From positions 1 to 50,779 of the forward strand of contig NZ_NHSJ01000112.1 in assembly GCF_002937075.1 (NCBI RefSeq): a stretch of DNA of 50,779 bases, written 5' to 3'. Within the stretch, counting starts at the first letter, position 1, and each line of letters starts with the position of its first letter. Shown here one piece after another: positions 8,315 through 30,725 of this stretch. The position numbers and the translations under genes are program-made. This stretch comes from Rhodoblastus sphagnicola. Lineage in GTDB: Bacteria > Pseudomonadota > Alphaproteobacteria > Rhizobiales > Beijerinckiaceae. The notes beneath the pieces were generated by a model. It was not told where the DNA came from and did no database searches. It was given only the letters and a program-made list of their open reading frames with translations.

Positions 8315-8450
8315 CGGGCTGTCCTTTCCATATTCTGGTCCGAAAACAGCCTCTTGCGCCCCGCATCCCGGAGCCCGCCGCAAGGGCGCGAAGCGCCGGG
8401 CTTGACCCTTGCGACGGGCGACGGTGATGCGGTAGCGGGATTATTCTTCT
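8315..8450 (-). promoter_or_regulatory. Structured operon leader, copy 1 (ardC)
   Basis: A repeat-family leader between a purine-rich tract and the ardC start codon. Seen directly: arms CCCGCCGCAAGGG (8374-8386) and 8406-8418, an apical GGCGC-GAA-GCGCC hairpin, outer arms CCGCATC/GATGCGG (8361-8367, 8426-8432), and a second small inverted repeat GGCTGT/ACAGCC (8317-8322, 8346-8351) that brackets the GGAAAGGA ribosome site. The single change in the long stem is a G-U pair in RNA of the minus strand but a mismatch on the other strand, which favours a function as minus-strand RNA or DNA. Confidence 0.75.
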
Positions 8451-8846
8451 TCTTTTTTGTTCAATTTCCTTATTCCTTCGAATCGTTCCGACGGCTCATC
8501 ATTGCCCACGTCGTTCGCGCAGTGGTGGCGAAGTCGAGCTGGCAAAACACTGCCCTCAGCCGAAGGAATCAATACGCACCCGGGAAGCGGAAAAGGCGCT
8601 GGAGTCCCGGCGATATCATGAGAAACCCCGTTCACACTAAGTTGCTATTTCGCTTCGCGAGACTTTGATCGATTGACAGTTGGAACGCCGCCTCCTCGCT
8701 CGGTGACTGTCACCCGTTCAAAAACTCCTCCATTTGCTGCGAGGCTTTCGCTATATGATAATCCAGAAAACACTCATCAATTGAACATTCAACTATAAAA
8801 CGTTAATTGAGTTCTGATACATAAATGTGATTCGGAGGAATCCAAA
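8451..8846. other. Divergent intergenic region ardC/mucR
   Basis: About 400 bases between two divergent transcripts. The left part is a pyrimidine-rich plus strand (purine-rich on the ardC sense strand), as in front of most leaders of this family. The right part, from about 8755, is markedly AT-rich for this DNA and ends with GGAGGAATCC before the mucR start. MucR proteins bind AT-rich sites and repress their own genes, so an autoregulatory site is likely there. I see no convincing gene. Confidence 0.5.
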
Positions 8847-9326
8847 ATGGCCGAAAATGAGAATACGCCGCTGGTAGCGCAAATTATTTCGTCTTATCTA
8901 TCCAATAATACGGTCGCCCCGGCAGACCTCATGTCTGTGATCGAGACGGTCAAGAACGCCTTCGGTGTAGCCGGCGGAAAGGCAGTCGCGGCTGAGGCTG
9001 AAGAGCCGAAGAAAATGGAGCCGGCGGTTTCAGTCAAGAAGTCCATCAGCCCGGATGCGTTGACGTGCCTGTGTTGTGGTAAGCCGTTCAAATCCTTGAA
9101 ACGTCATCTCCAATCGGAACACAACCTGTCTCCAAACGAATATCGCGCGACCTTTGGCTTGAAGGCCGACTATCCGATCGTGGCGCCGAACTATTCCGCC
9201 CAGCGATCCTCTTTGGCCAAGAGCGCCGGGCTGGGACGCAAGGCTGCCGAGGTCGTGAAGGCGACGAAGGGCGTGGAAAAAAAGCCCGTCAGGAAAAAGG
9301 CCGCGGTCAAAGCGGCGGCGGAATAA
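8847..9326 (+). CDS. mucR: MucR/Ros family zinc-finger regulator
   Basis: A 159-residue transcription regulator of the MucR/Ros family. It has the family's prokaryotic zinc finger (Cys74, Cys77, His87, His92 in CLCCGKPFKSLKRHLQSEH) followed by LSPNEYRATFGL and the DYPIVAPNY box. The N-terminal part carries the usual oligomerisation sequence (PLVAQIISSYLSNN). The C-terminus is a Lys/Ala-rich tail of the kind that contacts AT-rich DNA. GGAGG lies eight bases before the ATG. MucR controls exopolysaccharide, motility and plasmid genes in rhizobia; the neighbouring c-di-GMP gene suggests a surface or biofilm role here, which is inference. Confidence 0.92.
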   Translation: MAENENTPLVAQIISSYLSNNTVAPADLMSVIETVKNAFGVAGGKAVAAEAEEPKKMEPAVSVKKSISPDALTCLCCGKPFKSLKRHLQSEHNLSPNEYRATFGLKADYPIVAPNYSAQRSSLAKSAGLGRKAAEVVKATKGVEKKPVRKKAAVKAAAE

Positions 9327-9759
9327 CAGGATTCGGCATTCCGGGCTGTTGCCTTGGCGGTCCCGGCGCCAAATTCGTCTGAAACCGCGGCCAAGGTTGG
9401 GCGCTACGAACCTGTCTGCGATGCTGGGCGCCGGCAGGTTCGTTGTTGGCTACCAATGTCAACCGACGATAGGAAACGGCTCATTGCGGTCCTGCGACAA
9501 GACGGTCCCGCGCGGCGCGCTTTCGCTCGCTTAATAGACGTTTCAATAGCGAAACAGACCAGCGCTTTTGATTTGAAGCCGCAATTGGCTCCATAATCTA
9601 GCTTTTTTATTGTTTTGGCACGGAGGAGTTTGGATTCCACCTGTCATAATCACGGTCTGAGAAGTCGCGGGTAATGACCTCAATTCGAGACTTCACCGTG
9701 CCGGAGCAATAGGCAAACGTGGCGCCTGGGCCAGAGCGCAACTCCAAGAAGGGGCGCGG
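9327..9759. other. Intergenic region between mucR and GGDEF/EAL gene
   Basis: Some 430 bases with no ORF I can support. The segment around 9560-9720 is less GC-rich and may hold the promoter of the following gene, but I find no well-spaced -35/-10 pair. No clear terminator hairpin follows mucR. Confidence 0.4.
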
Positions 9760-12700
9760 ATGTGTGGCGCCGTCACAAAAAAAGGAAAAAGTTCAGACCT
9801 TAAATTGGACAATGAAACGAATTTTTACCAAATTCAGCAACTTATGGTTGCAGCATCTCCCGGCGCCCCCATCCCGCATGGCGACCGAAAACACTCGGCT
9901 GGCGTCATGCACATTTTTGGCCATTTCCAATTTCCGAATCCATGGACCCTTTCACTCTTGCGCGCCGCGCGTGTGGAGCTGCGCCCTGGCGTTCGCGCTG
10001 GAATGTGGCGGTCGCTCGCTTCGGGCGCGGTGGGGATCGCTATCATTATGGGCGCGACGACCCATCTGCTGCAGCGGCGAGAGGCGGCGCTGCGCGACGC
10101 CGAGCGCGAGTTGCAGAACATGGCGCACGTGGTGAGCCATTGGGTGGAGAGCGATGTCCGCGCGATCGAACTGCTCGAATCCAGCGTGACGGAATGGCTG
10201 CGCGCCGAGGGCGTCGGCGCGCCGGAGGCGCTGCGCGAACGACTCGCCGGCCGCGAAGCGCACGCGTCGCTGAGCGCCCGCGTCGCCGCCTTGCCGCAGG
10301 TCCGGAAGCTGTCGGTGGTCGACGCGGAGGGTCAGGCAGCCGCCAGTTCGAGCGCCTGGCCCGCTGAACCCATTTCGGTGGCGGCGCGCGACTATTTTCA
10401 GGTCCTGCGCGACGACCCCCGACGCGAAACCGTTATCAGCGGCGCGCTGGCGAGCCTGATCGATGGGCGCTGGATCATCAATATCGCCCGCCCCATAAGG
10501 ACCGCCGATGGCGTTTTTCTCGGCGCCGTCGTCGCCAGCGTCGAACTGGCCTATTTCGAGGACGCCTTCAGCCGTGTCGAAATCGGCCCGCGCAGTTCGG
10601 TCACGCTGTACCGCAGCGACGGCTTGATGCTGGCTCGCCACCCGCGACTTGAAGGCCGCATCGGCGCGGTCGTTCCCGAGAATGAAGCATGGCGCCGGGC
10701 GCTGGGAACGGCCGATATCGTCCCCCTGCGCCACGTCAGTCCGCTGGACGGGGTCGACCGGATGTTGGGCGTCCGCGTGCTTGATGAATATCCCCTTTAC
10801 CTCATCGCGGCCCGAGCGGTCGATGACATCCTCGCGCCCTGGCGTCGGGACGTCACCCGCTGGGTGATTGGTGTGCTGCTGCTGGAGTGCCTGCTTGGCG
10901 CGGGAGTCGTGCTGACCGGCCGCCAAGCCGCATCCAGGGAGAGCGAACGCGCGGCGCGCATCCACGAGCACCAGATGGCGCTCAACGCCGTCTTCGACAA
11001 TGGCGCGACCGGACTGGTCGAGATCGAGGCGCCCTCGAGGAAACTCCTGCGCGCCAACGACCGCTTTTGCGAAATGACGGGACGAACGGCGGCCGAGTTG
11101 CTCCAGTTCACCCCCGGCGACATCGCCCATCCGGATGACCGGGATCAACTGGTCGAGTACTGGCGCAAAGCGGTCGAAGGCGCCGCCCGGGCCGATGTGG
11201 TGGTGCGCTGCGTCAAGCCCGATGGAACCGTGACCTGGTGCCGCGTCAGCATGGCCGTCTCCGCACGCGATGACCGGGGGCGCGCGACGCGCGGCCTGGC
11301 CATCGTGCAAGACGTCACCGAAACGCGGGAAGCGTTGGAGCGACTGCGCGCCAACGAAGCATTGCTGCGACTCGGCCTTCAAATCGGCCGCATCGGCGCC
11401 TTCCGGCACGACATGGTCACCGACCTGGTGGACTGCAGCGCCGAGGCCCGGGCCATGTATGGCATGCCCCCGGGCGAGGCGTTGCTCACGGCGGCGGAAT
11501 GGTGGGGGGCGATTCTGCCCGAGGACCTCCAACGCCTGCGCTCCAGGATTGAAGCCAACAGCGCCGTCAAGACAGCCGACGAAGTCGCCACGTTCCGGGT
11601 TCGCCACATGGCCACCGGCGCCCTGCGCCATTTCGAGTCGCGGGTGCGCCGCGAGTACGCCGCCGACGGACGTCCGCTCGGCGCGCTGGGGGTCATCATC
11701 GACGTCACCGACGCCCGCCAGGCCGACGCGCTGCGGCAAATGAGTCTGGAGGTCGGCCGCATCGGCACGTTCCGCCTCGATTTCGTCAGCGGGCTCGTGG
11801 ATTGCAGCCCGGAAACCCGCGCGATGTATGGTTTTCCCCAGGATGGCGAAAAGCTCGCGATCGAACAATGGTGGGCTCCCCTCCTGCGCGAGGATCGCGA
11901 GCGCCTCCACGCCAAAATCGAAGCCGGCGCGCTGGACCGCGGCGATGTTGGAACCGACACCTTCCGCATTCATCATCTCGAAGATGGCGGCCTGCGCCAT
12001 TTCGAAGCCCGCACGCGCCGGGAGTATGGCGCCGACGGACAACACCTGGCCTCGCTGGGGGTGGTGATCGACGTGACCGAACGCCACGAGGCCGAGGCGC
12101 GCATCGCGCATCTCGCCCACCACGACGGCCTGACGGGGCTGCCCAACCGGACCTTGTTCCGCGAACGACTGGAAGCGGAGCTGGCCCGGGCGCACCGCGG
12201 GCGCGGCTTCGCCGTGCTGCTGATCGACCTCGACCGCTTCAAGGACGTGAACGACACGCTCGGCCACCCGGTCGGCGATGCGCTTCTACGCGAAGTCGCC
12301 GCGCGGCTGAAGGCGGAACTGCGCGATACCGATACGCTCGCGCGCCTCGGCGGCGACGAATTCGTCATTGTCGAGGCCGACACCGACGAGCCTCACAACG
12401 CAACCGCGCTGGCGCAACGGATCATCGCCGCCATCGAAAGGCCATTCGATCTCGAGGGCCATCAGGTCTGCGTCGGCGCCAGCGTCGGCATTGCCGTCGC
12501 TCCGTCCGACGGCCTGGACCCGGACGCCCTTGTGAAGGCGGCCGACATGGCCCTCTACCGCGCCAAGGCCGACGGTCGCGGCTGCCTCCGCTTCTTCGAG
12601 CCGGAGATGGACGCGCGCATGCAATTGCGCCGCGCCCTGGAGTCCGACCTGCGCCGGGCCCTGGCTGCGCAGGAATTCGACGTCTTCTTCCAGCCGATCG

Positions 12701-13434
12701 TCTCGGTCAGTTCACGTCGGGTGTCGTGCCTGGAGGCGCTGGTGCGGTGGCGCCATCCCGAACGCGGCCTGATCCCGCCCGACGCCTTCATTCCCCTTGC
12801 GGAGGAGATCGGCCTGATCGTCCCGCTTGGCGAATGGGTCCTGAACCGGGCCTGCGCCGAAGCCATGACTTGGCCCAGCGGTCCCAGGGTCGCTGTGAAC
12901 CTGTCGCCTGTCCAGTTCGCCCACCGCGGCCTTGTCGACGGGGTCGCGGCGGCGCTGGCGAAGTCCGGACTTGAACCTGACCGACTTGAGTTGGAAATCA
13001 CCGAGACGGTGATGCTGCAGGACACCGAGGCGACGCTGGCGACACTGAGACAGTTGAAAGCGCTTGGCGTTCGGATCGCGATGGACGATTTCGGCACGGG
13101 GTATTCATCGCTGAGCTATCTGCAGAGCTTCCCGTTCGACAAGGTGAAAATCGACCGCGCCTTCACCATTGGGCTTGGCGAATTGCCCCAGAGCGAAGCC
13201 ATCATCCGCGCAGTGACGGCGATGTGTGCCGCGCTCGCGATGACTTCCACCGCCGAAGGCGTGGAAACGGAAGGGCAGTTCGCGGCGCTTTCCCGAGAAG
13301 GATGCGGCGAGGCTCAGGGTTACCTGTTCAGCAAGCCCCTCCCCGCCGCGGACATTCCGGCCTTGCTGGCGCGGTTGGAGCGCGGAGCTTCCGCCCAGTT
13401 GGAAGCCGCCATCGCCACCGCCATGGTCGCTTGA
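9760..13434 (+). CDS. Membrane sensor with PAS, GGDEF and EAL domains
   Basis: A c-di-GMP enzyme of about 1224 residues. Order: transmembrane helix (about 85-103), periplasmic Cache-like sensor domain, second helix (about 367-388), three PAS-like repeats (about 405-780, the second and third very similar to each other), diguanylate cyclase domain with intact GGDEF (about 864-868), and phosphodiesterase domain with EALVRW (about 992), DDFGTGYSS and EGVETE. An RxxD inhibitory site lies five residues before GGDEF, so product inhibition of the cyclase is expected. Both active sites look complete, hence synthesis and breakdown are possible. The ATG at 9760 has AAGGGG upstream; starts at 9907 or 10003 cannot be excluded. 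It reads opposite to the surrounding plasmid genes, like mucR before it. Confidence 0.88.
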   Translation: MCGAVTKKGKSSDLKLDNETNFYQIQQLMVAASPGAPIPHGDRKHSAGVMHIFGHFQFPNPWTLSLLRAARVELRPGVRAGMWRSLASGAVGIAIIMGATTHLLQRREAALRDAERELQNMAHVVSHWVESDVRAIELLESSVTEWLRAEGVGAPEALRERLAGREAHASLSARVAALPQVRKLSVVDAEGQAAASSSAWPAEPISVAARDYFQVLRDDPRRETVISGALASLIDGRWIINIARPIRTADGVFLGAVVASVELAYFEDAFSRVEIGPRSSVTLYRSDGLMLARHPRLEGRIGAVVPENEAWRRALGTADIVPLRHVSPLDGVDRMLGVRVLDEYPLYLIAARAVDDILAPWRRDVTRWVIGVLLLECLLGAGVVLTGRQAASRESERAARIHEHQMALNAVFDNGATGLVEIEAPSRKLLRANDRFCEMTGRTAAELLQFTPGDIAHPDDRDQLVEYWRKAVEGAARADVVVRCVKPDGTVTWCRVSMAVSARDDRGRATRGLAIVQDVTETREALERLRANEALLRLGLQIGRIGAFRHDMVTDLVDCSAEARAMYGMPPGEALLTAAEWWGAILPEDLQRLRSRIEANSAVKTADEVATFRVRHMATGALRHFESRVRREYAADGRPLGALGVIIDVTDARQADALRQMSLEVGRIGTFRLDFVSGLVDCSPETRAMYGFPQDGEKLAIEQWWAPLLREDRERLHAKIEAGALDRGDVGTDTFRIHHLEDGGLRHFEARTRREYGADGQHLASLGVVIDVTERHEAEARIAHLAHHDGLTGLPNRTLFRERLEAELARAHRGRGFAVLLIDLDRFKDVNDTLGHPVGDALLREVAARLKAELRDTDTLARLGGDEFVIVEADTDEPHNATALAQRIIAAIERPFDLEGHQVCVGASVGIAVAPSDGLDPDALVKAADMALYRAKADGRGCLRFFEPEMDARMQLRRALESDLRRALAAQEFDVFFQPIVSVSSRRVSCLEALVRWRHPERGLIPPDAFIPLAEEIGLIVPLGEWVLNRACAEAMTWPSGPRVAVNLSPVQFAHRGLVDGVAAALAKSGLEPDRLELEITETVMLQDTEATLATLRQLKALGVRIAMDDFGTGYSSLSYLQSFPFDKVKIDRAFTIGLGELPQSEAIIRAVTAMCAALAMTSTAEGVETEGQFAALSREGCGEAQGYLFSKPLPAADIPALLARLERGASAQLEAAIATAMVA

Positions 13435-13649
13435 TCCGGCTTGCGCTGGAAGTATCTGCGGGCGTGGAGCCTCCCCACGTTCCCGGCGGGAGGTGAACAC
13501 TTCCGAGGCAATCGGTGTCGCCCGCCAAGCGGGGCGCTTCTTTGTCAGGGAGCCATGCGCGAGGGTCGTGGCCACACCACGTGTGCGCCATCTCCCAAGC
13601 TCAACCGCCGGCCTTCGCGTTGGGCCAGCCAATTGGCAGACGGGAGAAA

Positions 13650-14234
13650 TCAGACTGCTTCTCGGGGACTGGGGTCCACGTAGGAGACGTCATCCCAAAG
13701 CGGCCTGGGACCGTCAAAATAAGGATATGTTCCGTTGGGAACGACGAAGCCGAACTGACCGGGCTTGTATTCCTCGCTGGGGATCAGGAATCGGCGTTCG
13801 GGACCGTGGCTTCCCTGGCCGCCCTTGATGGCGATGCAATCGACCATGCCGGGTCGGGTCTTCGATGATAGGGCGGCGACGACAACCCAATCGTCGGCGT
13901 GCTTTTTGGCGAAGAGTTGCCGCTGCAGGACGAAGGAGTCTTTCGGCTCAAGCGTTTCGCCGGTCACAGCCATGTAGGCGTGCGGATGCCACGCTTTGGC
14001 GGTGTTCCTGGCGCTCTCGACGTGCTCGGCGTCGAACAAGTCGGGAAACGTCATGGCGACGATCGCCCAATCGCAATCTTCTTCGTACCATCCGTCCTCA
14101 CGACGCCAGGCGGTATGGATTTTTGCATTCTGGTCGGGAAGCACATGAAAGCCGCCGTGGGACGGCGTCTGGTAGAATGTGATTCCTTTGGCATAGGTTT
14201 GCTGTTCTTCGGATTCTCCCCAGGGCGTGTGCAT
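13650..14234 (-). CDS. Plasmid protein, possibly DUF7007 family
   Basis: A 194-residue soluble protein starting MHTPWGESEEQQ and containing GITFYQTPSHGGFHVL. The combination of 'TPWG' start and 'TPSHGG' reminds me of the plasmid family annotated DUF7007; this is from memory and not certain. The rest is rich in Trp/Tyr/Asp with no catalytic motif I can name. The ATG at 14234 is preferred to an upstream TTG, with AAGAG nearby. It is the last gene of the ten-gene operon that begins at 17237. Confidence 0.65.
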   Translation of the reverse strand: MHTPWGESEEQQTYAKGITFYQTPSHGGFHVLPDQNAKIHTAWRREDGWYEEDCDWAIVAMTFPDLFDAEHVESARNTAKAWHPHAYMAVTGETLEPKDSFVLQRQLFAKKHADDWVVVAALSSKTRPGMVDCIAIKGGQGSHGPERRFLIPSEEYKPGQFGFVVPNGTYPYFDGPRPLWDDVSYVDPSPREAV

Positions 14235-14262
14235 CGGGGTCAACTCTTGTGCCTGGGTTTTG

Positions 14263-14487
14263 TTAATTCCGGTGGGTTTCGCAGGTGGATTCGAGGATTT
14301 CGAAGCCGGGGTGCGGCGGAACGCCGGGGTCGAGAAATTGGATGAGCGCCGCCTTGACGCCGTCGATCAGTTTGATGGCCTCTCTTGCGGTCATGGCGTT
14401 GGCGCGCATCGCATGGCGACGAGCGCCCTTGATGAGCGCGCGTTCGTCATTGATCCGGGCAAACAGCGAGAATTCGGCGGTGTGCAT
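14263..14487 (-). CDS. Small hypothetical protein, 74 aa
   Basis: An unrecognised small protein, largely alpha-helical in character, with one Cys near the C-terminus. It is accepted because it lies on the same strand in the tightly packed operon, between genes 30 bases apart on both sides, and its frame is open over the whole gap. The ribosome site is weak. Function unknown. Confidence 0.5.
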   Translation of the reverse strand: MHTAEFSLFARINDERALIKGARRHAMRANAMTAREAIKLIDGVKAALIQFLDPGVPPHPGFEILESTCETHRN

Positions 14488-14517
14488 GGTCAGGTGTCCA
14501 TCGTTCCAAATGGGTGA

Positions 14518-14769
14518 TTATTCTTCGACGTCGGCTTCTTGAATGGTGAAGTGTTCGAAGTCGCGCTCCTCCATGTGATCCCAGTAAGCGGCGGCCGCCT
14601 CATTCGGGTTGTCGGGCTTCGGCTTTATGCTGGAGAGTTCGTGCTCCCACCATTTGAGCGCGATGGCGGTGCGCCAACGATGAGCGCCGGCCTCGCTCGT
14701 GAACACGCGTGTGTCGGAGCCGTGTTTGTGCTCGTAGGTCGCGACGACAACTTTGTCTCCGGTTTGCAT
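14518..14769 (-). CDS. Small hypothetical protein, 83 aa
   Basis: Unrecognised. It starts MQTGDKVVVATYEHKHG, which looks like a small beta-barrel opening, followed by an amphipathic helical half (AGAHRWRTAIALKWWEHEL) and an acidic end. The ATG at 14769 has GAGGGAG about eight bases upstream, better than a GTG three codons earlier. The start codon lies six bases beyond the upstream gene's stop. Part of the ten-gene leader-headed operon. Confidence 0.6.
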   Translation of the reverse strand: MQTGDKVVVATYEHKHGSDTRVFTSEAGAHRWRTAIALKWWEHELSSIKPKPDNPNEAAAAYWDHMEERDFEHFTIQEADVEE

Positions 14770-14774
14770 GACCG

Positions 14775-15095
14775 TCACTCCCTCGAAAAACAGCGTTGGA
14801 ATTCGTCGAAGATTGCGGTCATCGCTGGATTGTCGGTGTGATCGCTGATCAGCTCGTCGGGCGCGTTGCCGAACACCAGATCAATCATGCCGGCCGTCGC
14901 TCCGTCGCCGCCGCGCAGGCGCAACAGCGCCTCGCTGACGGCGGACGCCGCCTCGCAAATCTCGGGGATGTCGGTCGATCGTTTCACCGGCCAATCGCCG
15001 CCGTCATTCACCGAGATGGAATAGTCCTGCGCGATGATGATCGTGACAAGCGCTTGAAGCGCCTCTTGGTCGTTGCTGGGTTTGGTCAGGCGCAT
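14775..15095 (-). CDS. Small hypothetical protein, 106 aa
   Basis: Unrecognised acidic protein (MRLTKPSNDQEALQALVTII) with a Ser/Gly/Asp-rich centre. GGAGG precedes the ATG by eight bases, and three bases separate it from the stop of the upstream gene, so co-translation within the operon is likely. No membrane or metal-binding motif. Function unknown. Confidence 0.65.
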   Translation of the reverse strand: MRLTKPSNDQEALQALVTIIIAQDYSISVNDGGDWPVKRSTDIPEICEAASAVSEALLRLRGGDGATAGMIDLVFGNAPDELISDHTDNPAMTAIFDEFQRCFSRE

Positions 15096-15098
15096 CGG

Positions 15099-15722
15099 TC
15101 AGGCCTCCACCGCGCTGGGCCAGCCGATCGGCAGGGCGGAAAGCTTGGAAAGCTCGGCGGCGACGGCTTCCGCCTCGGCCTTGGTCTTGCAATCGGTGAT
15201 CGCCTCGCCGCTGTCGGGCTCCTTGTGCCGGGCATAGACGGTCCAGAATTCCGCTTCCTCGTCGGAGCACAGCCCGAGCGTGTGGCCGGGATCGTCGGGG
15301 TCGTCCTTGCAGCCGCCGATGGTGATGAACGAGAACTGCGACCAATCGGGGGGCAGACAGTTCGTGCAGCAATTGAACAGGCGGTTGCGTCGGTCCATGA
15401 GACGTGTCTGCTCGACTTCGGCGTTTTCCTCGGCGATCAGCGGCCCGATCAGGCCGCCAGGGGCGTCGGCCGCACGCACCCACCATCCCGCTTCGAGATA
15501 GCCGTGACCGGAGGCGTCGAAGACGTAGATCGAGGGATCCTGGCCCCTCTTGATCCAATCGGGGGCGTCAAATTCGCTGCCACAATCGTCGCAGGTGGTG
15601 TTGTCGTGGGTGCTGGAAAGCTCCCATTCTTGCTTTTCGTCCGACCAGCGCGCGGCGGCGTCGAACACGATGTCGTGGCTTCCGCAATGCGGACAGATCG
15701 GCGTCTTTTGTTGCTCGGTCAT
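15099..15722 (-). CDS. Zinc-ribbon plasmid protein, 207 aa
   Basis: The N-terminus has two CxxC knuckles, CPHCGSHD at about 9-16 and CDDCGSEFD at about 42-50, forming a likely zinc ribbon, then a Trp-rich region (YLEAGWWVRAADAPGG). A third cysteine cluster (FNCCTNCLPPDW) follows, and the C-terminus is an Ala/Glu helix. I do not recognise the family beyond 'zinc-ribbon, plasmid'. The ATG at 15722 has GGGAGGAT just upstream; a longer frame before it is the shadow of the neighbouring gene. A nucleic-acid-binding role is plausible but not shown. Confidence 0.7.
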   Translation of the reverse strand: MTEQQKTPICPHCGSHDIVFDAAARWSDEKQEWELSSTHDNTTCDDCGSEFDAPDWIKRGQDPSIYVFDASGHGYLEAGWWVRAADAPGGLIGPLIAEENAEVEQTRLMDRRNRLFNCCTNCLPPDWSQFSFITIGGCKDDPDDPGHTLGLCSDEEAEFWTVYARHKEPDSGEAITDCKTKAEAEAVAAELSKLSALPIGWPSAVEA

Positions 15723-15724
15723 GG

Positions 15725-17380: not shown

Positions 17381-17428
17381 TCTATTTCTTCCGTCGGCCC
17401 AGGCTGGGGCGTGGCCGTTGTCACCCGT

Positions 17429-18100: not shown

Positions 18101-18103
18101 GGC

Positions 18104-23440: not shown

Positions 23441-24565
23441 GCTCGTCTCTGCAGTAAGGCGACAAGCAGCGCAGTCAGACGATGAGATAATCGGAATTTG
23501 CGAGCCCGCGTGCTGAGCAACTCGGGCTTTTCGGCACCCTGGCGCATCGTCATAGGCAGCTACGCGGTTCCGACCGGCCTCCTTGGCGCGATAAAGGGCG
23601 ATATCTGCAAAACAGACGAGTTTTTCGATGGGATGCGACGACAATGCCTCGATGGAGGTCACGCCAATGCTCGCAGTCACTTTTCCGAAGCCTTGGGGTG
23701 CAGGATTCGGCAGTCCCAGCTTTTCGATCGCCGTGCGAATGCGCTCCGCAACCTCGAAGGCCCCAATTGCATCAGTATCGGGAAGAATCACAGCAAATTC
23801 TTCACCGCCGTAGCGTGCGGCGACGTCGCCGGCGCGAAAAAGCTGGCCTACGATGGTGGCGGCGATAAGGCGCAAGCAGTCGTCGCCACGTTGATGACCG
23901 AAAGCATCATTATATTGTTTAAAGAAGTCGATATCGAGCAGCAACACCGACATCGAGGATCCATTGCGGCGCCCTCGTCGCCACTCGTCTTCAAGGCGAC
24001 TGTCGAAGAAGCGGCGGTTACCGATCGCAGTCAGCCCGTCGCTTGAGGCAAGGGCTTGAAGCTCGGCTTCGGCGACTTTTTGCGCGGTAATATCGCGCAA
24101 AGATTCGACCACGGCGATGATTTCGCCCGAGTCGTCGAAGATGAGCCCGGCGTCGATCGCCAGATAGAGCCGTCTCGCGGCCCCCGGCATAACGCACCAG
24201 TTTTCCGCCGATAGCCCATTGCGGGCGCCGACTACGTCGGAATGTGCGGCGTAAAGAGAGACGGCTTCCGCTTCCTGATTTCTAAGCAGCAGATCAACAA
24301 GGCAAGGCCGCTCCACGTCATAGAAAGCTCGCCAGTGCTCGCGCGTTCCCAATACATCTATTGCCAATACGCCCGTCAGGCGTTCGCAGGCTTTATTCCA
24401 GATGATGACCCGCCCGTCGCGGTCAATCACAAAGGTTGGTACGACTAGATGCTCCATCAAGCGGACAGCAAAGCTTCGATCACTGTTGGAGGTCGACGAT
24501 GCTTCGCCCGGTTGCGCCTCCAGAATTGCTACCATGTCCCGTCCCTGATGAGAGAGCGTCAACAT
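23384..24565 (-). CDS. PAS-GGDEF diguanylate cyclase with altered C-terminus
   Basis: A soluble protein of 393 residues: PAS domain (about 30-170, PTFVIDRDGRVIIWNKACER) and diguanylate cyclase domain (about 170-340) with GGEEF and the DIDFFKQYND and ADIALYRAKEAGRNR motifs, so probably active in making c-di-GMP. No RxxD inhibitory site is seen at the usual place. The last 40 or so residues are Ser/Thr-rich and are read from Nramp DNA in the wrong frame, so the natural stop was lost in a deletion. The ATG at 24565 has a weak ribosome site; ATG 24535 is an alternative. Confidence 0.8.
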   Translation of the reverse strand: MLTLSHQGRDMVAILEAQPGEASSTSNSDRSFAVRLMEHLVVPTFVIDRDGRVIIWNKACERLTGVLAIDVLGTREHWRAFYDVERPCLVDLLLRNQEAEAVSLYAAHSDVVGARNGLSAENWCVMPGAARRLYLAIDAGLIFDDSGEIIAVVESLRDITAQKVAEAELQALASSDGLTAIGNRRFFDSRLEDEWRRGRRNGSSMSVLLLDIDFFKQYNDAFGHQRGDDCLRLIAATIVGQLFRAGDVAARYGGEEFAVILPDTDAIGAFEVAERIRTAIEKLGLPNPAPQGFGKVTASIGVTSIEALSSHPIEKLVCFADIALYRAKEAGRNRVAAYDDAPGCRKARVAQHAGSQIPIISSSDCAACRLTAETSSTTRTSSACSSSSAPQPP

Positions 24566-24849
24566 TCCAAGTGCAGAGAATATTCTCCAAATAATTGAAG
24601 AAGCTATAATTTTTCAATCTAAGGTTGCGGCGCTGCCGGTCGTCGATTCTCACGCCCGTTTTTCAATAGTCACGAGCGCCGATTCATTTCGCTATCGGAA
24701 CGTCCGTTGAGCATGCGACTCCCGCCGGTGGACTTTCATGTCATAGGACCGCTTCGAGCCGGACCCGGTCGATCATGCCGCCTCAATCTGGCTCGCCGCC
24801 CCTCTACATGTAATGCATGCCTTGACCGGATAGGCACGCTTTCGTCTAC

Positions 24850-25311
24850 TCAAAGCGCTGACAGGTCCGCGTCGGACTTCAGGTCGTCGCGACCGAGATA
24901 GGAAATGGCGAGTTCGCGAAAGATGTAGTCGATGACCGAGGTGGCGCTGGTGATGGCGTCGTTGCCCTCGACGACGCCAGCCGGCTCGAAACGGGTCGAA
25001 ACGAACGCGTCGACGAATTCCTCCAACGGCACGCCAAATTGCAGGCCTATGGAAACCGCGATGGCGAAACTGTTCATCAGGCCGCGAAACGCCGAGCCTT
25101 CCTTGTGCATGTCGATGAAGATTTCGCCGAGGCGGCCGTCAGGATATTCTCCGACCTGCAGATAGAGCTTGTGCCCGGCGATCCGAGCTTTCTGGGTATA
25201 ATTTGTGCGGCGCGTGGGCAGGCCCTCGCGCAGGATCAGGCGTTCAACCTGGCGCGGCGCCGCGTCATCCGGCGCCGCGGCGATCTCCTGGATTTCTGGC
25301 AATCGTTCCAT
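24850..25311 (-). CDS. Standalone segment of B12-dependent ribonucleotide reductase
   Basis: A 153-residue protein matching only the late part of class II (adenosylcobalamin) ribonucleotide reductase Nrd[52 protein letters not shown] and the [11 protein letters not shown] end. The catalytic barrel and radical-site cysteines are absent, so it is not a reductase. Such proteins are annotated as 'TSCPD domain' proteins. It has its own start with GGAG and sits 28 bases after the helicase gene, so it looks like an expressed unit rather than debris. Role unknown; binding of a nucleotide or of the host reductase is conceivable. Confidence 0.8.
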
Positions 25312-25339
25312 TGCGGGCTCCTGTTCGAACGGATCGGGA

Positions 25340-27460
25340 TCAAAGGCTGCGCAGACGGGCGCCGAGCGCGCGCAACGCGTTGGCCCTTTGCGGCGAAAGG
25401 TGGGACCGTCCAGCTTGATCGGACGGACGCTTGGCGTGCGCCTTGGCGTTGGCGGGAATGTCCTCGATGAAGATCGACGGCTGGCTCGGACCGCGCCGGA
25501 ATTGCGCTGAGGAAATCGTCACATGGCGCTTGCCGCGCGTGAGCGCGACATAGGCGAGACGCCGTTCCTCGGCGGCGTCGCCATAGGTCGACGGGATAAT
25601 GCCGTTCTCGAAAGCGGGCAGGAACACCTGCTCGAATTCCAGGCCCTTGGCGCGGTGCATGGTCATCAAACGAACGGCGGGCGCCGCGCCTTCGCTGGCG
25701 CGGTTGGTGGCGAGCGCTGCGTGATCGAGGAGCTCGCGCGCGGAATGGAAGCTCGAAGCCAGCGAGACCAGTTCTTCCAGATTTTCCAGTCGGCCGGCGG
25801 CGTCTTCGGCCTTGCTGGCGCGCAACAACTGGCGATAGCCGCACGCGTCGAGCAATAGAGAAATCTGATCGGCGAGCGAATGGCTCCGGTGAGCGCCGAT
25901 GCGGCGGACCTGGTCGGCCATTTTCAGGCCTTCGCCGCGGGCTTTCGGAGGAAGAGTGGCCGTGTCGAGCGCGCAGAGCAGCGACACCTTGCGGAACGCG
26001 GCTTCCTCCTCAACGATCGCGAGGGTTTGCGGACCGAACCCCCGGCGCGGTTCGTTGATCACGCGACGGAACGCTTCGTCGGATTGGCGATCGTCGGGAT
26101 GGGTGGCGAGGCGTAGATAGGCGAGCGCGATCTTGATCTCCTGGCGCGCGTAAAAGCCGACGTCACCCACGATCTCGTAAGGGATTTTGGCGCGCATCAG
26201 CGCTTCCTCGAAAGCGCGCGACAGCACGTTGGTGCGATAGAGCACGGCCATATGGTCCCAGGGCAGGCCCTCGCCATGGCGCGCGTTGATGGCGGCCGCG
26301 AGATTGAGCGCCTCGGCCTCGGCGTCGCGATAGGTTGCGATCGTGATCGGCTGGCCGTCGCCCAGATTGGTGTAGAGCGTCTTGCCCAGGCGCTTCTTGT
26401 CGCCGGCGATAACGCCGTTGGCGGCGGCGAGGATATGGCCGGTCGAGCGGAAATTCTCTTCGAGGCGGAATTCGCCGGCGTCGGGAAAGTCGCGGGTGAA
26501 TCTGCGTATGAGTCCTACATCAGCCCCTCTCCAGCCGTAGATCGATTGGTCATCATCGCCCACGGCAAAGAGGCGATTGCAATGGCTCGCCATGGCCTTC
26601 AGCCAGGAGTGCTGTGCGTAATTGACGTCCTGAAATTCGTCCGCCAACACGGCGTCGAAGCGCTCGGCCCATTGCCGGCGATATTGCCTGTCGTTCATCA
26701 GCGCCAGGGTCGGCCAAAGCAGGAGATCGCCGAAATCGGCGGCGTTGGCCTCGCGCAGGCGCTGCTGGTAGAGCGCATAGATCTTGGCGGCGTTGCGGAA
26801 CGTCATGCTTTCGATCGGTTCGCCCTTTCTTTCGGCGGCGGCGATCATGGCCTCGATCCGGGACGAGGCCGTTTCCGGGGTGATCAACTGGTCCTTGAAC
26901 GACGAAATTTTGTTGGCGATCGTCTTGACCGGATCGCGACCTCCGGCGCTCTCCGGGTTATTGGCGATGTTCAGCGCCTTCATGATGCGCTTGATCAGGA
27001 GATGGGCGTCGCCGGCGTCCAGAATGTCGAAATCCTTGCGCAGGCCAGCAATCTCCGGGGAGGTGCGCAACTGTCTGGCGCCCAGGCCATGGAACGTTCC
27101 GAGCCAGTTGGGCGCGGCGTGTTCGCCCAGAGCGGCGCGGATGCGCTCGGCCATTTCGGCCGCCGCCTTGTTGGTGAAGGTGGACACGAGAATGCGGGAG
27201 GCCGGGATTTCCTCGATTTCGATCTTGTAAACCACCGAGGCGGTCAGCGTCGAAGTCTTGCCCGTGCCAGCGCCGGCGAGAACGAGCGTCGACCCTGGGT
27301 GCATTGCCGCCTCTCGTTGAACCGGCGTTAAGCGTGCGGCAAGCGTTTCCCAAGCGTCGGGCAGAGTTTCGCCGGGCTCGTTGGCCATCATGGATTGCCA
27401 GTCGTCCCAGATGTCGGGGCCGCTATCGAGTTCGGGCAGGTATTCATCGGGATCGGACAT
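25340..27460 (-). CDS. UvrD/Rep-family DNA helicase
   Basis: A 706-residue superfamily 1A helicase. Visible motifs: Q-motif region LTPVQREAA, Walker A AGAGTGKT (62-69), TFTNKAA (Ia), DEFQDVN (II, about 270), [14 protein letters not shown] (III), ENFRST (IV), [16 protein letters not shown] (V) and [11 protein letters not shown] (VI). All key residues are present, so a working 3'-5' helicase is expected. Start ATG 27460, with GGAG upstream, 14 bases after the HD protein gene. On a conjugative element it may aid replication or repair of incoming DNA; it differs from chromosomal UvrD by an extra acidic N-terminal stretch. Confidence 0.88.
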
Positions 27461-27474
27461 GATTGTGGCTCCGC

Positions 27475-28167
27475 TCAGGTGTGATGGGGCATCGACGCGC
27501 TTGCGTCGCAGGCGGCGTGAGCCTCCTCGCAACGGGCGGCGTCGAGCAGGCCGTAAAGGCGGTCCAGGAACATCGATTCCGCGACACTGGCGGGCCAAGG
27601 CTCCCAGGGCTCGAAGCTCGGATCGGGAGCGGTCAGCGGGTCAATCGACAACGGAGGAACGATGATGCCGAGGGTGTCGCGCAGTTCCTCGCGGCTCCAT
27701 CCGACGACGTGAAACGCCTCGGATGCCGCAGCCAGTTTGTCAGCCGCTTTGTGGAGCCGGTAGGTTTCCGTTGTCCATTTGGGCAGACGGTAGCGCACGT
27801 CGATCAAACCTTGCAGCTTCTCGTCGAGCGCGAGGAATGCGCCGCCGAGATGCGGCTTCAGCGGTCCGGTCGGGTCCCAACCCAAGAGCGCCTCAGACCC
27901 ATCGTGGCCCAACTCCCTGAGGGCTTCCCGGGCCGTCAGCTGTTGTTGCATCTCGACGATGCGCAGCACGAGCAGACTGTGTTGAGCGACGGAGAGCGGG
28001 CGCTTCCATTTGGTCGCGCCGGCCCATCGGGGGATGCGCGCGAGGTTGTATGCGAGGTCTTCGTCGGTCCAGCTGTCGGGGGTGGGATCGAGGAGATTGA
28101 ATTTGTGGCCGGATCGAAACAGGATGAAGGCGCGCTGTGGCGCCGTGTCGACGTGTTCATGTTTCAT
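27475..28167 (-). CDS. HD-domain phosphohydrolase
   Basis: A 230-residue HD-superfamily protein. NLARIPRWAG...RPLSVAQHSLLV (first metal His at about 63) and LGHDGSEALLGW (HD doublet at about 88-89) follow the layout of YfbR-like plasmid and phage nucleotidases. It would hydrolyse a nucleoside phosphate using a divalent metal. AAGGAGAT precedes the ATG, which overlaps the Toprim gene's stop by four bases. With the NrdJ segment and helicase in the same operon, a nucleotide-supply function is a fair guess. Confidence 0.75.
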   Translation of the reverse strand: MKHEHVDTAPQRAFILFRSGHKFNLLDPTPDSWTDEDLAYNLARIPRWAGATKWKRPLSVAQHSLLVLRIVEMQQQLTAREALRELGHDGSEALLGWDPTGPLKPHLGGAFLALDEKLQGLIDVRYRLPKWTTETYRLHKAADKLAAASEAFHVVGWSREELRDTLGIIVPPLSIDPLTAPDPSFEPWEPWPASVAESMFLDRLYGLLDAARCEEAHAACDASASMPHHT

Positions 28168-29102
28168 GGCGTATCTCCTTGGGATTTGAGGACGTCGTTC
28201 CAATCCTCGCCTTCAAGCGGCGGGCGGCGGCGCAGGAAGGGAACGCCCGCCTCCTTGGCGAGCGTCTCGTGGCGCGCCGCATAGCGATCGCCGGCGAGGT
28301 TGGCGTCGGTCGCGCTTTCGAACCGCGCGGCGGGCATGGCCGCGATCGAGAGCAAGAGGTTTCTGATGGCGGCGGTCGTTTCCGGACCCATGCCCCCGCC
28401 AGTCGCGGCATAAACCGTGTCGTCGCGCAGATTTTCGAGCGCGGCGCGGCTCAGCGCGTCGATCGCGGCCTCCGCCAGGACGAAACGGCTTCGAAGCGCG
28501 GCGTCGCGCGGGAACAAAAACAGCGACTTGCAGCCGCCGGTGAGCGAACCTTTGTAGGTCGGGCCTCGGACATCGACATGGGTGACAACGCCGGCGGTGC
28601 GATGGGCGAACCAGGCCGAGCCGTAGGGGCCGTCGCGAATGACGTCGCAGCGGGCGGCGGCAAGAAGCACGGTTTCCGGCAAACCGCGGCCCGCAAGATA
28701 GAGCCAGGTCTGCGAATGCTTGCGCAACCGGCGCTTTTGCGCCCATCGCTCGGCGATCGGGAGCGACGCGTTGGATCTGGTCCTGATTCGCTCCATGGGC
28801 GTGAAGTCCGGCTGGACGCCAGCGAGCGGCCGAAGCGCTTTGCGCACGTGGCCGAAATTCAGCCCAGGCTCCAAATGTTGGACGAGGCCGAACACATCGC
28901 CCTTGGCGTCGCTGTTGGGGTCCCACCAGCCGGCGCCATTATGCGTGACGATGACGATCTCGCCGGCGCCACGACGGTATTTCAGGCAATGACGGGTGCT
29001 CTCAGCGCGGTCGAGCCGCCAGGGCGGCGTCGCCTGTTCAAGAACGGTCGCGCAACTGACGGCGGCGCGCAGTTCGTCAAGTTCGGTTTGAGGATGTTTC
29101 AT
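28164..29102 (-). CDS. DUF3991/Toprim primase-like protein
   Basis: A 312-residue protein with an N-terminal DUF3991-type region (DRAESTRHCLKYRRGAGEIV, GWWDPNSDAKGDVFGLVQHL) and a C-terminal Toprim domain (VLAEAAIDALSRAALE with the acidic residue, then a DANLAGDRYA block equivalent to the DxD motif). These proteins are plasmid relatives of DnaG-type primases without the zinc finger. Start ATG 29102 is preceded by AGGAGAAGGAG. First gene of the leader-5 operon. Primase activity is not certain. Confidence 0.8.
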   Translation of the reverse strand: MKHPQTELDELRAAVSCATVLEQATPPWRLDRAESTRHCLKYRRGAGEIVIVTHNGAGWWDPNSDAKGDVFGLVQHLEPGLNFGHVRKALRPLAGVQPDFTPMERIRTRSNASLPIAERWAQKRRLRKHSQTWLYLAGRGLPETVLLAAARCDVIRDGPYGSAWFAHRTAGVVTHVDVRGPTYKGSLTGGCKSLFLFPRDAALRSRFVLAEAAIDALSRAALENLRDDTVYAATGGGMGPETTAAIRNLLLSIAAMPAARFESATDANLAGDRYAARHETLAKEAGVPFLRRRPPLEGEDWNDVLKSQGDTP

Positions 29103-29275
29103 CTCCTTCTCCTGGATTGTCGCCGGGAGGCTCGTTCCGGCTGGTTTTTTTGCGATTGAGGCCAACCCGATCGCGAGGCGGCGACGTGGCAAGGGCGCGC
29201 GGAATCGCGCGGGAGCGAGCGACGCACCCTTGCGGCGACAGACGGCGATAGCGGTAGGGATGAATGTGCGCTTTC
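29103..29275 (-). promoter_or_regulatory. Structured operon leader, copy 5 (diverged)
   Basis: It keeps the core GCAAGGG/CCCTTGC (29189-29195, 29227-29233) and an apical stem, but the apical pairs are now CGCGCG/CGCGCG around GGAAT instead of GGCGC/GCGCC: a changed sequence with pairing kept. On the sense strand it is preceded by 'CTACCGCTATCGCCGTC', almost the same as in copies 1-3. It lies 86 bases before the Toprim start, further than in the other copies. Confidence 0.6.
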
Positions 29276-29347
29276 CTTCCGGGCCTCTCGATGAGGCATC
29301 AAGGGAAGGATCGAATGGCGCGAAGTCGAAGCGGCCTTGTCGGCCTA

Positions 29348-29854
29348 TCAGCAGAAGGTGGTTTTGATGGCTTCCATGAAGGCGCGCAGATCGGCGTCCT
29401 GGATGGCCCGTTCTTCAACCCGACGAATGGCGTGAAGGACCGTGGTGTGGTCGCGGTTGAATCGGCGGCCGATGCGGGGCAACGACCAGTTAGTGATCTT
29501 CTTCACCGCCCACATGGCCTCTTGTCGCGCAGCGGCGATCGCTGCTGGCTTTTCGTCGCCAAGGATTTCCTTGATGGAGACGCCCGTTCGTTCGGAGACC
29601 AGCTTCAGGATCGGCCCGGATTTCTCGTTCGACAGGTCAATCGTCGAGACCAGGCGTGATAGAGTTGTAACGGGCGTCGGGATTGTTGTGGGAACCGTCG
29701 CCGGGTCCGTTCCGACCAGCTCGCGGATCGGTGTCTTCATTTTCGGGGTTGTGACGCCTGGTGAATAGAGCCGTTGTCGTGCGGCCCGGTATCTGGCGAT
29801 AAGCTCGGCGCTCGAATGCGGTTCGCAGGTGGTGGCGAGTTGAAGCGATCTCAT
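29348..29854 (-). CDS. DnaA C-terminal-like DNA-binding protein
   Basis: The last 70 residues (AARQEAMWAVKKITNWSLPRIGRRFNRDHTTVLHAIRRVEE) match the DnaA-box-binding domain of replication initiator DnaA, including the DHTTVLHA signature helix. The AAA+ ATPase part is absent; the N-terminal 90 residues are low-complexity Thr/Pro-rich. It could bind DnaA boxes and influence plasmid or host replication. ATG 29854 has AAGGAAG upstream; ATG 29890, five bases after the methylase stop, would add twelve residues. Second gene of the leader-6 operon. Confidence 0.8.
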   Translation of the reverse strand: MRSLQLATTCEPHSSAELIARYRAARQRLYSPGVTTPKMKTPIRELVGTDPATVPTTIPTPVTTLSRLVSTIDLSNEKSGPILKLVSERTGVSIKEILGDEKPAAIAAARQEAMWAVKKITNWSLPRIGRRFNRDHTTVLHAIRRVEERAIQDADLRAFMEAIKTTFC

Positions 29855-29894
29855 GATGTTGGCTTCCTTGAGTTGAGGGTTAGGGGTCATGTCC

Positions 29895-30599
29895 TCATTC
29901 GTCCGGATAATCGCCCGGGCGTTCGAGCCGGTCGCGGCAAGGCGGAATGAATCGGAAGCGCGGATCGCCCCAATCTGTTGGCGCACCGCGCCACCAGACC
30001 AGCCAGGAGTAGGACGTCGCGGTGCTTTGTCGCATTCCTCTGGGCGTCGTCGAGGTCGGCTTCCGCTTCCACTTGCGGACTCGGCTTTTGATGATCGGCA
30101 GCCGTTGCACGAACTGACATATGAACTGGGGCGGGCTGTCCGCGAAAAGCCCATGGTAGCGTGTCTCGCCCTCCACGAAGGATGAGCGGGTCAGCATCGC
30201 GACCAGGCGCCAATCGGGCAGGGCAAGCGCGCGGGTGATGAAGGCCTGGGCCGCCTTGAACGGCGGGTTGGAGATAATGATCTCGGCTGTTGTGGCGACC
30301 GTTTCGCCGGCGGCGAGGAAATCGCCCACATGATCTTGCGGGTCGATCGTCTCTGGATCGGGCCGATAGTCGAAAATGTCGGAGGTCGTGACATCAGGCC
30401 AATATTCTTTGAGGGGCCGGCTCATGTAGCCGCGGTTCGCGGTCGGCTCGAAAACCCGACCTTCGGGGACGCCGATATCGGTTTGCGCCAGGACTTCCTC
30501 GACCAGGGATCGCGTGCCCCAGCAGGGTGTGGGAAAATCATCGAGCGAGGTGCGAGGCTCAACGCGTTGAGCCCGAACCGCGTGGCTGGACATTTTCAT
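29895..30599 (-). CDS. DNA methylase-like protein
   Basis: A 234-residue protein with a SAM-pocket-like segment (VFEPTANRGYMSRPLKE, about 50-66), an Asp after the second strand (SDIFDYRPD) and the amino-methylase catalytic motif NPPF (111-114) followed by KAAQAFITRAL. No target-recognition domain is obvious. It belongs with small plasmid or phage adenine or cytosine N-methylases and might mark incoming DNA as self. The Arg/Lys-rich part at about 175-190 is unusual. First gene after leader 6. Confidence 0.75.
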   Translation of the reverse strand: MKMSSHAVRAQRVEPRTSLDDFPTPCWGTRSLVEEVLAQTDIGVPEGRVFEPTANRGYMSRPLKEYWPDVTTSDIFDYRPDPETIDPQDHVGDFLAAGETVATTAEIIISNPPFKAAQAFITRALALPDWRLVAMLTRSSFVEGETRYHGLFADSPPQFICQFVQRLPIIKSRVRKWKRKPTSTTPRGMRQSTATSYSWLVWWRGAPTDWGDPRFRFIPPCRDRLERPGDYPDE

Positions 30600-30725
30600 C
30601 GTCGCCTCTTTTCTTCTGCAGGAATTCTCGCTTTAAACACCAGCGGACATTCGCGGCCGCGCAGGGCAAGGGCGCGCCAGCGCCGGGCTTGACCCTTGCG
30701 CAGCGGGGCCGCGAATGGCATTCAT
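30600..30725 (-). promoter_or_regulatory. Structured operon leader, copy 6
   Basis: Outer perfect 11-base arms CATTCGCGGCC (30648-30658) and GGCCGCGAATG (30707-30717), inner GCAAGGG/CCCTTGC (30666-30672, 30693-30699) and the apical GGCGC-loop-GCGCC as in copies 1-3, with the same CCGGGCTTGA flank. The outer stem sequence is entirely different from the other copies but is again perfectly paired. It lies 48 bases before the methylase ATG. Confidence 0.72.

What the first reader, a model, noticed from the sequence alone, without database searches (positions are those of the whole stretch)
8315..30725. One structured leader family heads all six minus-strand plasmid operons
Copies with hairpin cores at 8374-8418, 17295-17339, 19206-19250, 22588-22643, 29189-29233 and 30666-30699 each lie 48-86 bases before the first gene of an operon and nowhere else in this block. 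All have the same sense orientation. Every copy keeps GCAAGGG/CCCTTGC with a GC apical hairpin, and most have a purine tract upstream. Together they control about 30 genes. I know no named RNA or DNA motif of this description.
Basis: partly seen in the sequence, partly recalled or inferred. Interest (0 to 1): 0.9.

Follow-up and report, generated by a model that had tools for sequence, protein, structure and literature searches.

The report
DNA hairpins heading plasmid entry operons
Six copies of a long hairpin stand just before the operons that this plasmid probably needs first in a new host, and sequence comparisons suggest that the hairpin works in the single DNA strand that enters during mating, where it could start those genes early; the start itself has not been tested.

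Summary
Six GCAAGGG/CCCTTGC hairpins lie 61-86 nt before likely start codons of six minus-strand units, and the pattern occurs nowhere else in the 5.09 Mb assembly. They belong to a family: 83 copies in 40 sequence clusters from alphaproteobacterial plasmids and draft contigs, and 14 more in five of six plasmids fetched afterwards, before ArdC, ParB-like, toprim, SSB and unnamed genes. Stems covary. The strand evidence speaks against a sense-RNA leader: mismatches are A.C, C.C and C.T on the gene strand, so G.T, G.G and G.A on the template strand, and the apex forms a hyperstable DNA mini-hairpin (GNA loop) on the template strand in 31 of 40 clusters, on the gene strand in 2 of 40; shuffled apices give 6.7 and 3.2. 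In 3 of 4 Ti-type relatives a nic-like motif makes that template strand the one entering the recipient. I conclude: a T-strand hairpin, probably a single-stranded-DNA promoter for leading-region operons. It works like Frpo of F but lacks canonical -35/-10 boxes. Transcription from it is inferred, not shown.

The parts
8354..8438 (-). H1 hairpin, copy 1 (core 8380-8412), before the ArdC unit; proposed active form is the + (template) strand
8318..8351 (-). H2: small hairpin bracketing the ribosome-binding site (GGCTGT...ACAGCC) between H1 and the start codon at 8314
   Evidence: read; H2 as a class:
7361..8314 (-). ArdC-like antirestriction protein (ArdcN + MPTase-PolyVal), first gene behind copy 1; helicase/methylase 2159-7249 follows
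17276..17359 (-). H1 hairpin, copy 2 (core 17301-17333), before the unit starting at about 17237
19187..19270 (-). H1 hairpin, copy 3 (core 19212-19244), before the unit starting at about 19147
22573..22658 (-). H1 hairpin, copy 4 (core 22599-22632), before the unit starting at 22537
22538..22576 (-). H2 of copy 4 (CTCAGGA...TCCTGAG, ribosome-binding site inside)
29160..29262 (-). H1 hairpin, copy 5 (core 29189-29233, longer apex, weak lower stem; not found by model R1), before the DUF3991/toprim gene 28164-29102
30640..30725 (-). H1 hairpin, copy 6 (core 30666-30699), before the unit starting at 30599
1617..30599 (-). Block of mostly minus-strand genes (28 ORFs picked by script), read as a conjugative leading region: ArdC, helicase/methylase, DUF7007, DUF5983, UvrD-like helicase, DUF3991-toprim; interrupted by plus-strand MucR and GGDEF/EAL genes
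   Evidence: leading-region reading by comparison with relatives

Best explanation
Each copy (H1) is a DNA element that works when the transferred strand (T-strand) enters a recipient as single-stranded DNA. The T-strand is the template strand of the operons behind H1. It folds there into an imperfect hairpin, up to about 25-30 pairs, in most copies capped by a hyperstable GNA/GNNA mini-hairpin. The folded strand gives an RNA polymerase (or a primase-like starter) a place to begin, so that the anti-restriction and establishment operons are transcribed before the complementary strand exists. The start codon lies 44-105 nt beyond the core by a simple start finder (38 of 40 clusters), often behind a second small hairpin around the ribosome-binding site. 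Shown: the family, its place before genes, covariation, and the strand bias. Shown in relatives by motif or layout only: the block lies on the leading side of oriT. Inferred: that H1 starts transcription, and which polymerase is used.
For: Specificity: 102 hits (a palindromic core usually counts on both strands) at score 10 or more in 36 sources against 0 in the same sequences read backwards; at that score none in Methylocella p2 34.5-208.7 kb. Place: 26 of 30 copies in annotated plasmids are intergenic and at most 160 nt before a same-strand CDS. Covariation: 12 of 12 variable lower-stem pairs change on both sides, score 0.249 against 0.079 shuffled; core pairs also change, GCAAGAG/CTCTTGC, GCAAAGG/CCTTTGC, ACAACGG/CCGTTGT. 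Strand: isolated mismatches on the gene strand, one copy per cluster, A.C 35:G.T 8, C.C 24:G.G 3, C.T 23:A.G 5; later copies pooled 49:13, p=5e-6. Apex: GNA on the template strand in 31 of 40 clusters, gene strand 2 of 40, against 6.7 and 3.2 in shuffled apices; with GNNA 35 and 7 against 12.2 and 6.0; later plasmids 11 against 1 of 15 hits. GNA/GNNA mini-hairpin DNA is called extraordinarily stable in PMC4686876 (passages). Phage N4 promoters use a template-strand hairpin with a 5'G..A3' loop (PMC4496689, passages). Orientation: inverted repeat plus GCGC nic-like motif on the strand antisense to the block in 3 of 4 Ti-type plasmids; MOBF relaxase co-oriented and downstream of the block in 5 of 5 contigs holding both (one only if circular). 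ArdC must be made in the recipient in R388 (PMC7213743, passages).
Against: No canonical -35/-10 in the stem: 0 of 40 reach 9 of 12 matches, although the mean is a little above shuffles, 6.50 against 5.91. No transcript data. The window's contig has no relaxase match in the two families searched; the genome's TrwC relaxase is on another contig. For the window's six copies alone the folding energies of the two strands hardly differ except for 29189 and 30666. Apex letters alone favour GNA on the template strand about two to one, and GCTNCGC outnumbers GCGNAGC in the rest of the blocks too (337:245), though far less than inside H1 (40:3; Fisher p=1e-6). Clusters are related, so p-values are optimistic. 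In Rhizobium favelukesii a DUF3991 gene responds to a donor regulator mutant (PMC13055273, passages), so such genes may also have ordinary promoters.
Confidence: 0.61

Rival explanations
1. H1 is a sense-RNA leader: the transcript starts upstream and the RNA hairpin controls termination, decay or translation of each operon (for example through an RNA-binding or NusG-type protein).
For: Place in the 5' region of the units; covarying stem; a second hairpin around the ribosome-binding site (stem score 7 or more in 24% of 38 clusters against 1% of shuffles). A second NusG-family gene is present in 9 of 11 H1-bearing genomes against 1 of 5 same-genus genomes without a pattern match.
Against: On the gene strand A.C mismatches outnumber G.T 35:8, the reverse of an RNA helix kept by selection. 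Stable loops sit on the other strand. None of the NusG matches listed is on an H1 contig, and two H1-bearing genomes (G180, G144) have one NusG only. No conventional sigma-70 pattern upstream beyond shuffles.
Confidence: 0.13
2. H1 is a single-strand initiation (ssi-type) site: a T-strand hairpin where a primase or RNA polymerase makes primers for the complementary strand; the place before operons is secondary.
For: Same strand evidence as the best explanation; DUF3991-toprim (primase-like), helicase and SSB genes are in the blocks; Frpo itself was described as promoter and primer site (title of Masai and Arai 1997, seen in reference lists).
Against: Priming would not need copies before successive units at a narrow distance from the start codon, nor explain none at score 10 in the other 174 kb of Methylocella p2.
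Confidence: 0.13
3. The folded molecule is an antisense RNA (same letters as the T-strand), for example an antisense terminator or regulator.
For: Template-strand letters fold better with RNA parameters too (31 of 39); a pyrimidine-rich tract follows the hairpin on that strand.
Against: Needs an antisense promoter within each unit; by eye the tract is rarely a T run close to the stem; GNA/GNNA caps are described as a DNA feature.
Confidence: 0.06
4. H1 is a double-stranded operator for a plasmid master regulator.
For: Shared by all units of one element, as in regulons.
Against: Arm spacing varies from 17 to 87 bases, lower-stem sequence is free as long as it pairs, and a duplex site should show no strand bias in mismatches or loops.
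Confidence: 0.04

Closest known systems
Frpo / ssi single-stranded-DNA promoters of F, ColIb-P9 and related plasmids
   Same: Stem-loops in the leading region, before ssb, psi and anti-restriction operons; genes read from the T-strand; proposed to work before the complementary strand exists (PMC11541004 and PMC9849209, passages).
   Different: Those carry canonical -35/-10 boxes in the stem and were found by similarity to Frpo or by those boxes. H1 has no such boxes, a different conserved core (CAARGG...CCYTTG), a GNA/GNNA cap in most clusters, a purine tract on the gene strand, and lies in alphaproteobacterial plasmids.
Phage N4 virion RNA polymerase promoters
   Same: Template-strand hairpin with a loop beginning G and ending A closed by G:C; SSB melts the other strand's hairpin (PMC4496689, passages).
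   Different: A short stem read by a phage polymerase; H1 is far longer, and no RNA polymerase gene is listed for Methylocella p2 (that gene table may be incomplete).
Ti-type oriT (MOBQ) of the same plasmids
   Same: GCGCCCTTG letters also occur at the nic-like site of L200 and L220.
   Different: The oriT carries them on the T-strand after a short inverted repeat; H1 has them on the opposite strand inside a long stem and in several copies per element.

Membership tests
Frpo/ssi ssDNA promoters | Lies in the leading region, before early-entry genes, with the T-strand as template | tested here: met
   In relatives only: nic-like motif on the antisense strand between traC and traA in L200, L202, L220, none found in L219; MOBF layout in 5 of 5 contigs. 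The nic arrangement is recalled, not from a call. Not testable in the window's own contig.
Frpo/ssi ssDNA promoters | T-strand folds into a stable stem-loop, favoured over the complementary strand | tested here: met
   Family. The window's six copies alone show little difference.
Frpo/ssi ssDNA promoters | Canonical -35 and -10 boxes formed in the stem | tested here: not met
   0 of 40 clusters reach 9 of 12 matches; mean 6.50 against 5.91 in shuffles
Frpo/ssi ssDNA promoters | Sequence similarity to known Frpo/ssi | not tested
   F plasmid record not held under the accession tried
Frpo/ssi ssDNA promoters | RNA synthesis from the single-stranded form | not testable with these tools
   needs in vitro transcription or mating assays
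cis-regulatory RNA leader (riboswitch, antiterminator, RNA-protein leader) | Gene-strand helix kept, with G.U tolerated over A.C | tested here: not met
   A.C 35 against G.T 8
cis-regulatory RNA leader (riboswitch, antiterminator, RNA-protein leader) | Match to a described Rfam family | tested here: not met
   no match at H1 in the window; in L159, L200, L202 two matches, neither at H1; gathering threshold only
duplex operator of a master repressor | Fixed spacing of half-sites and no strand bias | tested here: not met
N4-type hairpin promoters | Template-strand hairpin with GNA loop | tested here: met
   31 of 40 clusters on the template strand, 2 of 40 on the gene strand
N4-type hairpin promoters | Cognate hairpin-specific RNA polymerase on the element | tested here: inconclusive
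   none in the gene tables of Methylocella p2, which may be incomplete; no polymerase search was run

The most novel reading that the evidence does not exclude
H1 is a new class of single-stranded-DNA promoter, without sigma-70 boxes, that launches the leading-region operons of many alphaproteobacterial plasmids. A filamentous-phage-like clade carries a similar core hairpin, and in 13 of 13 contigs the T-strand-like form of it is on the strand with more long ORFs, the presumed virion strand, so the reader of the signal may be a host enzyme shared by plasmids and ssDNA phages.
Probability: 0.35. Interest if true: 0.92.

Novelty: new variant of a known kind. Interest (0 to 1): 0.8.

Why it matters
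Early gene expression from the entering strand is described for F-like plasmids, where Frpo carries ordinary promoter boxes. How other plasmids express anti-restriction genes in time is open. H1 offers a concrete signal in rhizobial, acetic-acid-bacterial and methanotroph plasmids, in several copies per element, and a strand-specific fingerprint (mismatch type, GNA cap) that can be sought in other leading regions without assuming promoter boxes. If right, it also marks which genes a plasmid needs first, many of them still unnamed.

Tried and rejected
NusG-paralogue antitermination: not pursued further. A second NusG-family gene does occur more often in H1-bearing genomes (9 of 11) than in the five same-genus genomes without a pattern match that I added (1 of 5), but none of the listed matches is on an H1 contig and two bearers lack it. 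On holding the report against the calls I mended an earlier wording that denied any association, and moved 0.01 from the best explanation to the RNA-leader rival.

First covariance model R1: useful near home, but in 347 genomes of the order (Infernal's stricter filters) it gave no convincing new member; the G505, G452 and G360 hits look like other palindromes. A strict core pattern found only the window's genome among 385 of the class; variable apices defeat both. R1 also misses the window's 29189 copy. Of 27 of 298 family genomes with the first pattern, I judged 11 (the window's own included) to carry the family and 16 to be chance, by eye.

A gap-tolerant hairpin search before annotated genes was too lenient and was discarded. 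Thirty ArdC loci with the best Pfam scores in the order mostly carry other leaders: 28 were scored, with 10 template-only and 1 gene-strand-only GNA/GNNA, mostly in unrelated hairpins. So H1 goes with certain plasmid lineages, not with every ardC. Methylocapsa (L164) and one Lichenicola plasmid (L168) show H1 by eye or as weak model hits, but contribute none to the 83.

For the first 39 copies the fold difference favoured the template strand in 31 (RNA parameters) or 33 (DNA parameters); these copies are related, so I rely on the clustered counts. No backwards control was run at the exact settings; at score 8 with a stricter core gave 146 against 0. From I left out one of 15 hits (L219:4726, odd core, 94-base loop, opposite to the gene it lies in) before counting. 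Score thresholds (10, 8, 6) were chosen by looking. The start finder picks some wrong starts. Gene tables were typed in part for L164, L199, L200, L201 and L202.

No title or abstract start listed names such hairpins in alphaproteobacterial leading regions; subscription papers and preprints are not in that library.
Full report
What is in the window. Six hairpins with the invariant stem GCAAGGG/CCCTTGC lie at the stated coordinates on the minus strand. The pattern with a 5-35 base loop occurs 6 times in the window (0.01 expected) and at 6 places in the whole 5.09 Mb assembly, all here (backwards control 1). Each lies 61-86 nt before a plausible start codon. The genes behind them include an ArdC antirestriction protein, a large helicase/methylase, DUF7007, DUF5983, a UvrD-like helicase and a DUF3991-toprim protein. 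Genus mates that carry copies match named Rhodoblastus records, and further relatives Roseiarcus, judged from equal contig lengths.

The family. A pattern search of 298 genomes of the family gave matches in 27; in 11 of them, the window's own included, I judge the copies to be family members, several per genome in Rhodoblastus and Roseiarcus and co-oriented within a contig. An alignment of 35 copies shows an invariant core GCAAGGGTC-NN-GCC-NN-GCGC-loop-GCGCCCTTGC and a changing but paired lower stem: 12 of 12 variable pairs have changes on both sides, covariation score 0.249 against 0.079 in shuffles; 88% of cells pair, against 76% in shuffles and 36-51% when the partner is slid. Weak model hits revealed copies with longer apices in further genera. 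A protein search with the window's ArdC then led to named plasmids. H1 stands before ArdC, toprim, ParB-like, SSB or unnamed genes in Methylocella, Methylosinus, Roseomonas and Lichenicola plasmids, and before a DUF1419 gene of Rhizobium and Roseibium plasmids; in Methylocapsa it is seen by eye only. The core itself covaries (GCAAGAG/CTCTTGC, GCAAAGG/CCTTTGC, ACAAGGG/CCCTTGT, ACAACGG/CCGTTGT).

A search by core plus paired arms, applied alike to both strands, gave 102 hits (a palindromic core usually counts on both strands) at score 10 or more in 36 sources and none in the same sequences reversed; none of the 102 fell in Methylocella p2 between 34.5 and 208.7 kb. With a looser core and score 8, 83 copies in gene orientation (32 of 34 sources) form 40 clusters; five of the window's six are among them, the 29189 copy scoring too low. 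In annotated plasmids 26 of 30 copies are intergenic and at most 160 nt before a same-strand gene; of the four others two are 707 and 1351 nt and one 256 nt before the next listed gene, and one overlaps the end of a gene, 116 nt before the next.

Which strand folds. An RNA helix tolerates G.U, whose complement is A.C; so the balance of A.C and G.T mismatches tells which strand is under selection. One copy per cluster, isolated mismatches on the gene strand: A.C 35, G.T 8 (p=4e-5); C.C 24, G.G 3; C.T 23, A.G 5; A.A 2, T.T 2. The three informative classes say that the template strand is the one kept foldable. Flanking composition does not obviously explain this: GC skew is +0.15 between H1 and the start codon, -0.05 in the sequence beyond, -0.13 in the 5' arm and -0.02 in the 3' arm; A exceeds T in the flanks and T exceeds A in the apex. 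The apex agrees. A GNA loop closed by two G-C pairs is on the template strand in 31 of 40 clusters and on the gene strand in 2 of 40; shuffling each apex gives means of 6.7 and 3.2 and maxima of 14 and 9 in 300 rounds, so letters alone give a two-to-one lean but not the counts seen. With GNNA loops: 35 and 7 against 12.2 and 6.0. PMC4686876 calls such GNA/GNNA mini-hairpin DNA extraordinarily stable (passages). Inside H1, gene-strand GCTNCGC against GCGNAGC is 40:3; in the rest of the blocks it is 337:245.

Check on later plasmids. Six more plasmids were chosen by a toprim search and fetched before looking at their hairpins: Geminicoccaceae, Rhizobium, Acetobacter, Rhodopseudomonas, Bradyrhizobium, Komagataeibacter. 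The scan, at a lowered score of 6, gave 15 hits and none in the reversed controls. I set one aside, the only one in the Geminicoccaceae plasmid. The 14 kept, in five plasmids, lie 48-164 nt before a listed gene; mismatches pooled are 49 against 13 in the same direction (p=5e-6; A.C 13:G.T 5 alone p=0.1). The GC-GNA-GC cap is on the template strand in 11 of the 15 and on the gene strand in 1.

Is that strand the transferred strand? In three of four Ti-type plasmids a short inverted repeat followed by GCGC(C/T), the nic arrangement I recall for RSF1010 and pTiC58, lies between traC and traA on the strand antisense to the block, pointing into traC, traD, traG and then the block; none was found in the fourth (L219). 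In contigs with both H1 and a MOBF relaxase, the relaxase gene is co-oriented and downstream in 5 of 5 (G174 only if its contig is circular). If oriT lies just before the relaxase genes, as I recall for R388, the block is the leading region and its template is the T-strand. The window's contig has no match to the two relaxase families searched.

Mechanism. Leading-region genes of F-like plasmids are read from the T-strand, some from Frpo, a hairpin that restores -35 and -10 boxes (PMC11541004 and PMC9849209, passages). ArdC of R388 must be made in the recipient (PMC7213743, passages). Phage N4 promoters show that a template-strand hairpin with a sheared G:A loop can be a promoter and that SSB removes the other strand's hairpin (PMC4496689, passages). 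H1 fits this logic, but has no canonical boxes: 0 of 40 clusters reach 9 of 12 matches in Frpo geometry, although the mean exceeds shuffles (6.50 against 5.91, sd 0.11). The gene-strand region before H1 is purine-rich, hence pyrimidine-rich and probably open on the T-strand. H2, a small hairpin around the ribosome-binding site, is stronger than chance and would lie in the transcript if RNA starts between H1 and H2; I did not resolve its role.

Limits. No RNA evidence exists here. Clusters are related, so p-values are optimistic; the later plasmids are the better check. The six window copies alone would not have shown the strand bias. NusG paralogues are commoner in H1-bearing genomes but not on the H1 contigs. 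Genes of the block may also have ordinary promoters: a DUF3991 gene of a Rhizobium plasmid rises in a donor regulator mutant (PMC13055273, passages).

Noticed in passing
L067-L069, L071, L073-L075, L078-L080, L084-L086 (IMG/VR contigs of 7-11 kb): A filamentous-phage-like clade (Zot-like Walker-A ORF in 5 of 13 contigs by a simple motif) carries one hairpin with core GCAAGGGT...CGCGCCCTTGC; in 13 of 13 the complementary, T-strand-like form is on the strand with more long ORFs, the presumed virion strand. My search pattern fixed 19 of these bases, so likeness may be chance or convergence.
   Followed up: partly
window 39077-39381, + strand, maturase 39467-40858: Group II intron D1-D4 RNA matches in front of a reverse transcriptase/maturase ORF.
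   Followed up: no
window 8847-13434, + strand: A MucR-type regulator and a GGDEF/EAL protein sit on the opposite strand inside the block; Methylosinus plasmids also have MucR just before ArdC.
   Followed up: no
33/34-base cores in the window and relatives (A2): On the template strand the invariant letters read GGC-N7-TTGC, the spacing I recall for sigma-54 promoters; by eye it is not kept in the longer-apex copies, and in duplex DNA it would point away from the gene.
   Followed up: partly
A2 core, gene strand GTC-NN-GCC-NN: A ten-base one-sided bulge with conserved letters sits between the core stem and the apical stem; in many longer copies a C.C/C.C internal loop follows the core. Possible protein contacts, unexplained.
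   Followed up: no
L127 and L130 (genome G505): Near-perfect palindromes of about 120 bases; the centre of L127 reads CAAGGGTCGAGCCAAGCGC..GCGCCCTTG, like H1, in an A+T-rich relative; possibly a mobile palindromic repeat.
   Followed up: no
L170, L175, L176, L178, L179, L182, L186, L187, L195, L197, L198: Another ardC lineage shares a different, conserved hairpin ending 2-4 bases before the start codon (GACGGGTTGAGG...GGCGCCCGTC), perhaps a separate leader family.
   Followed up: no
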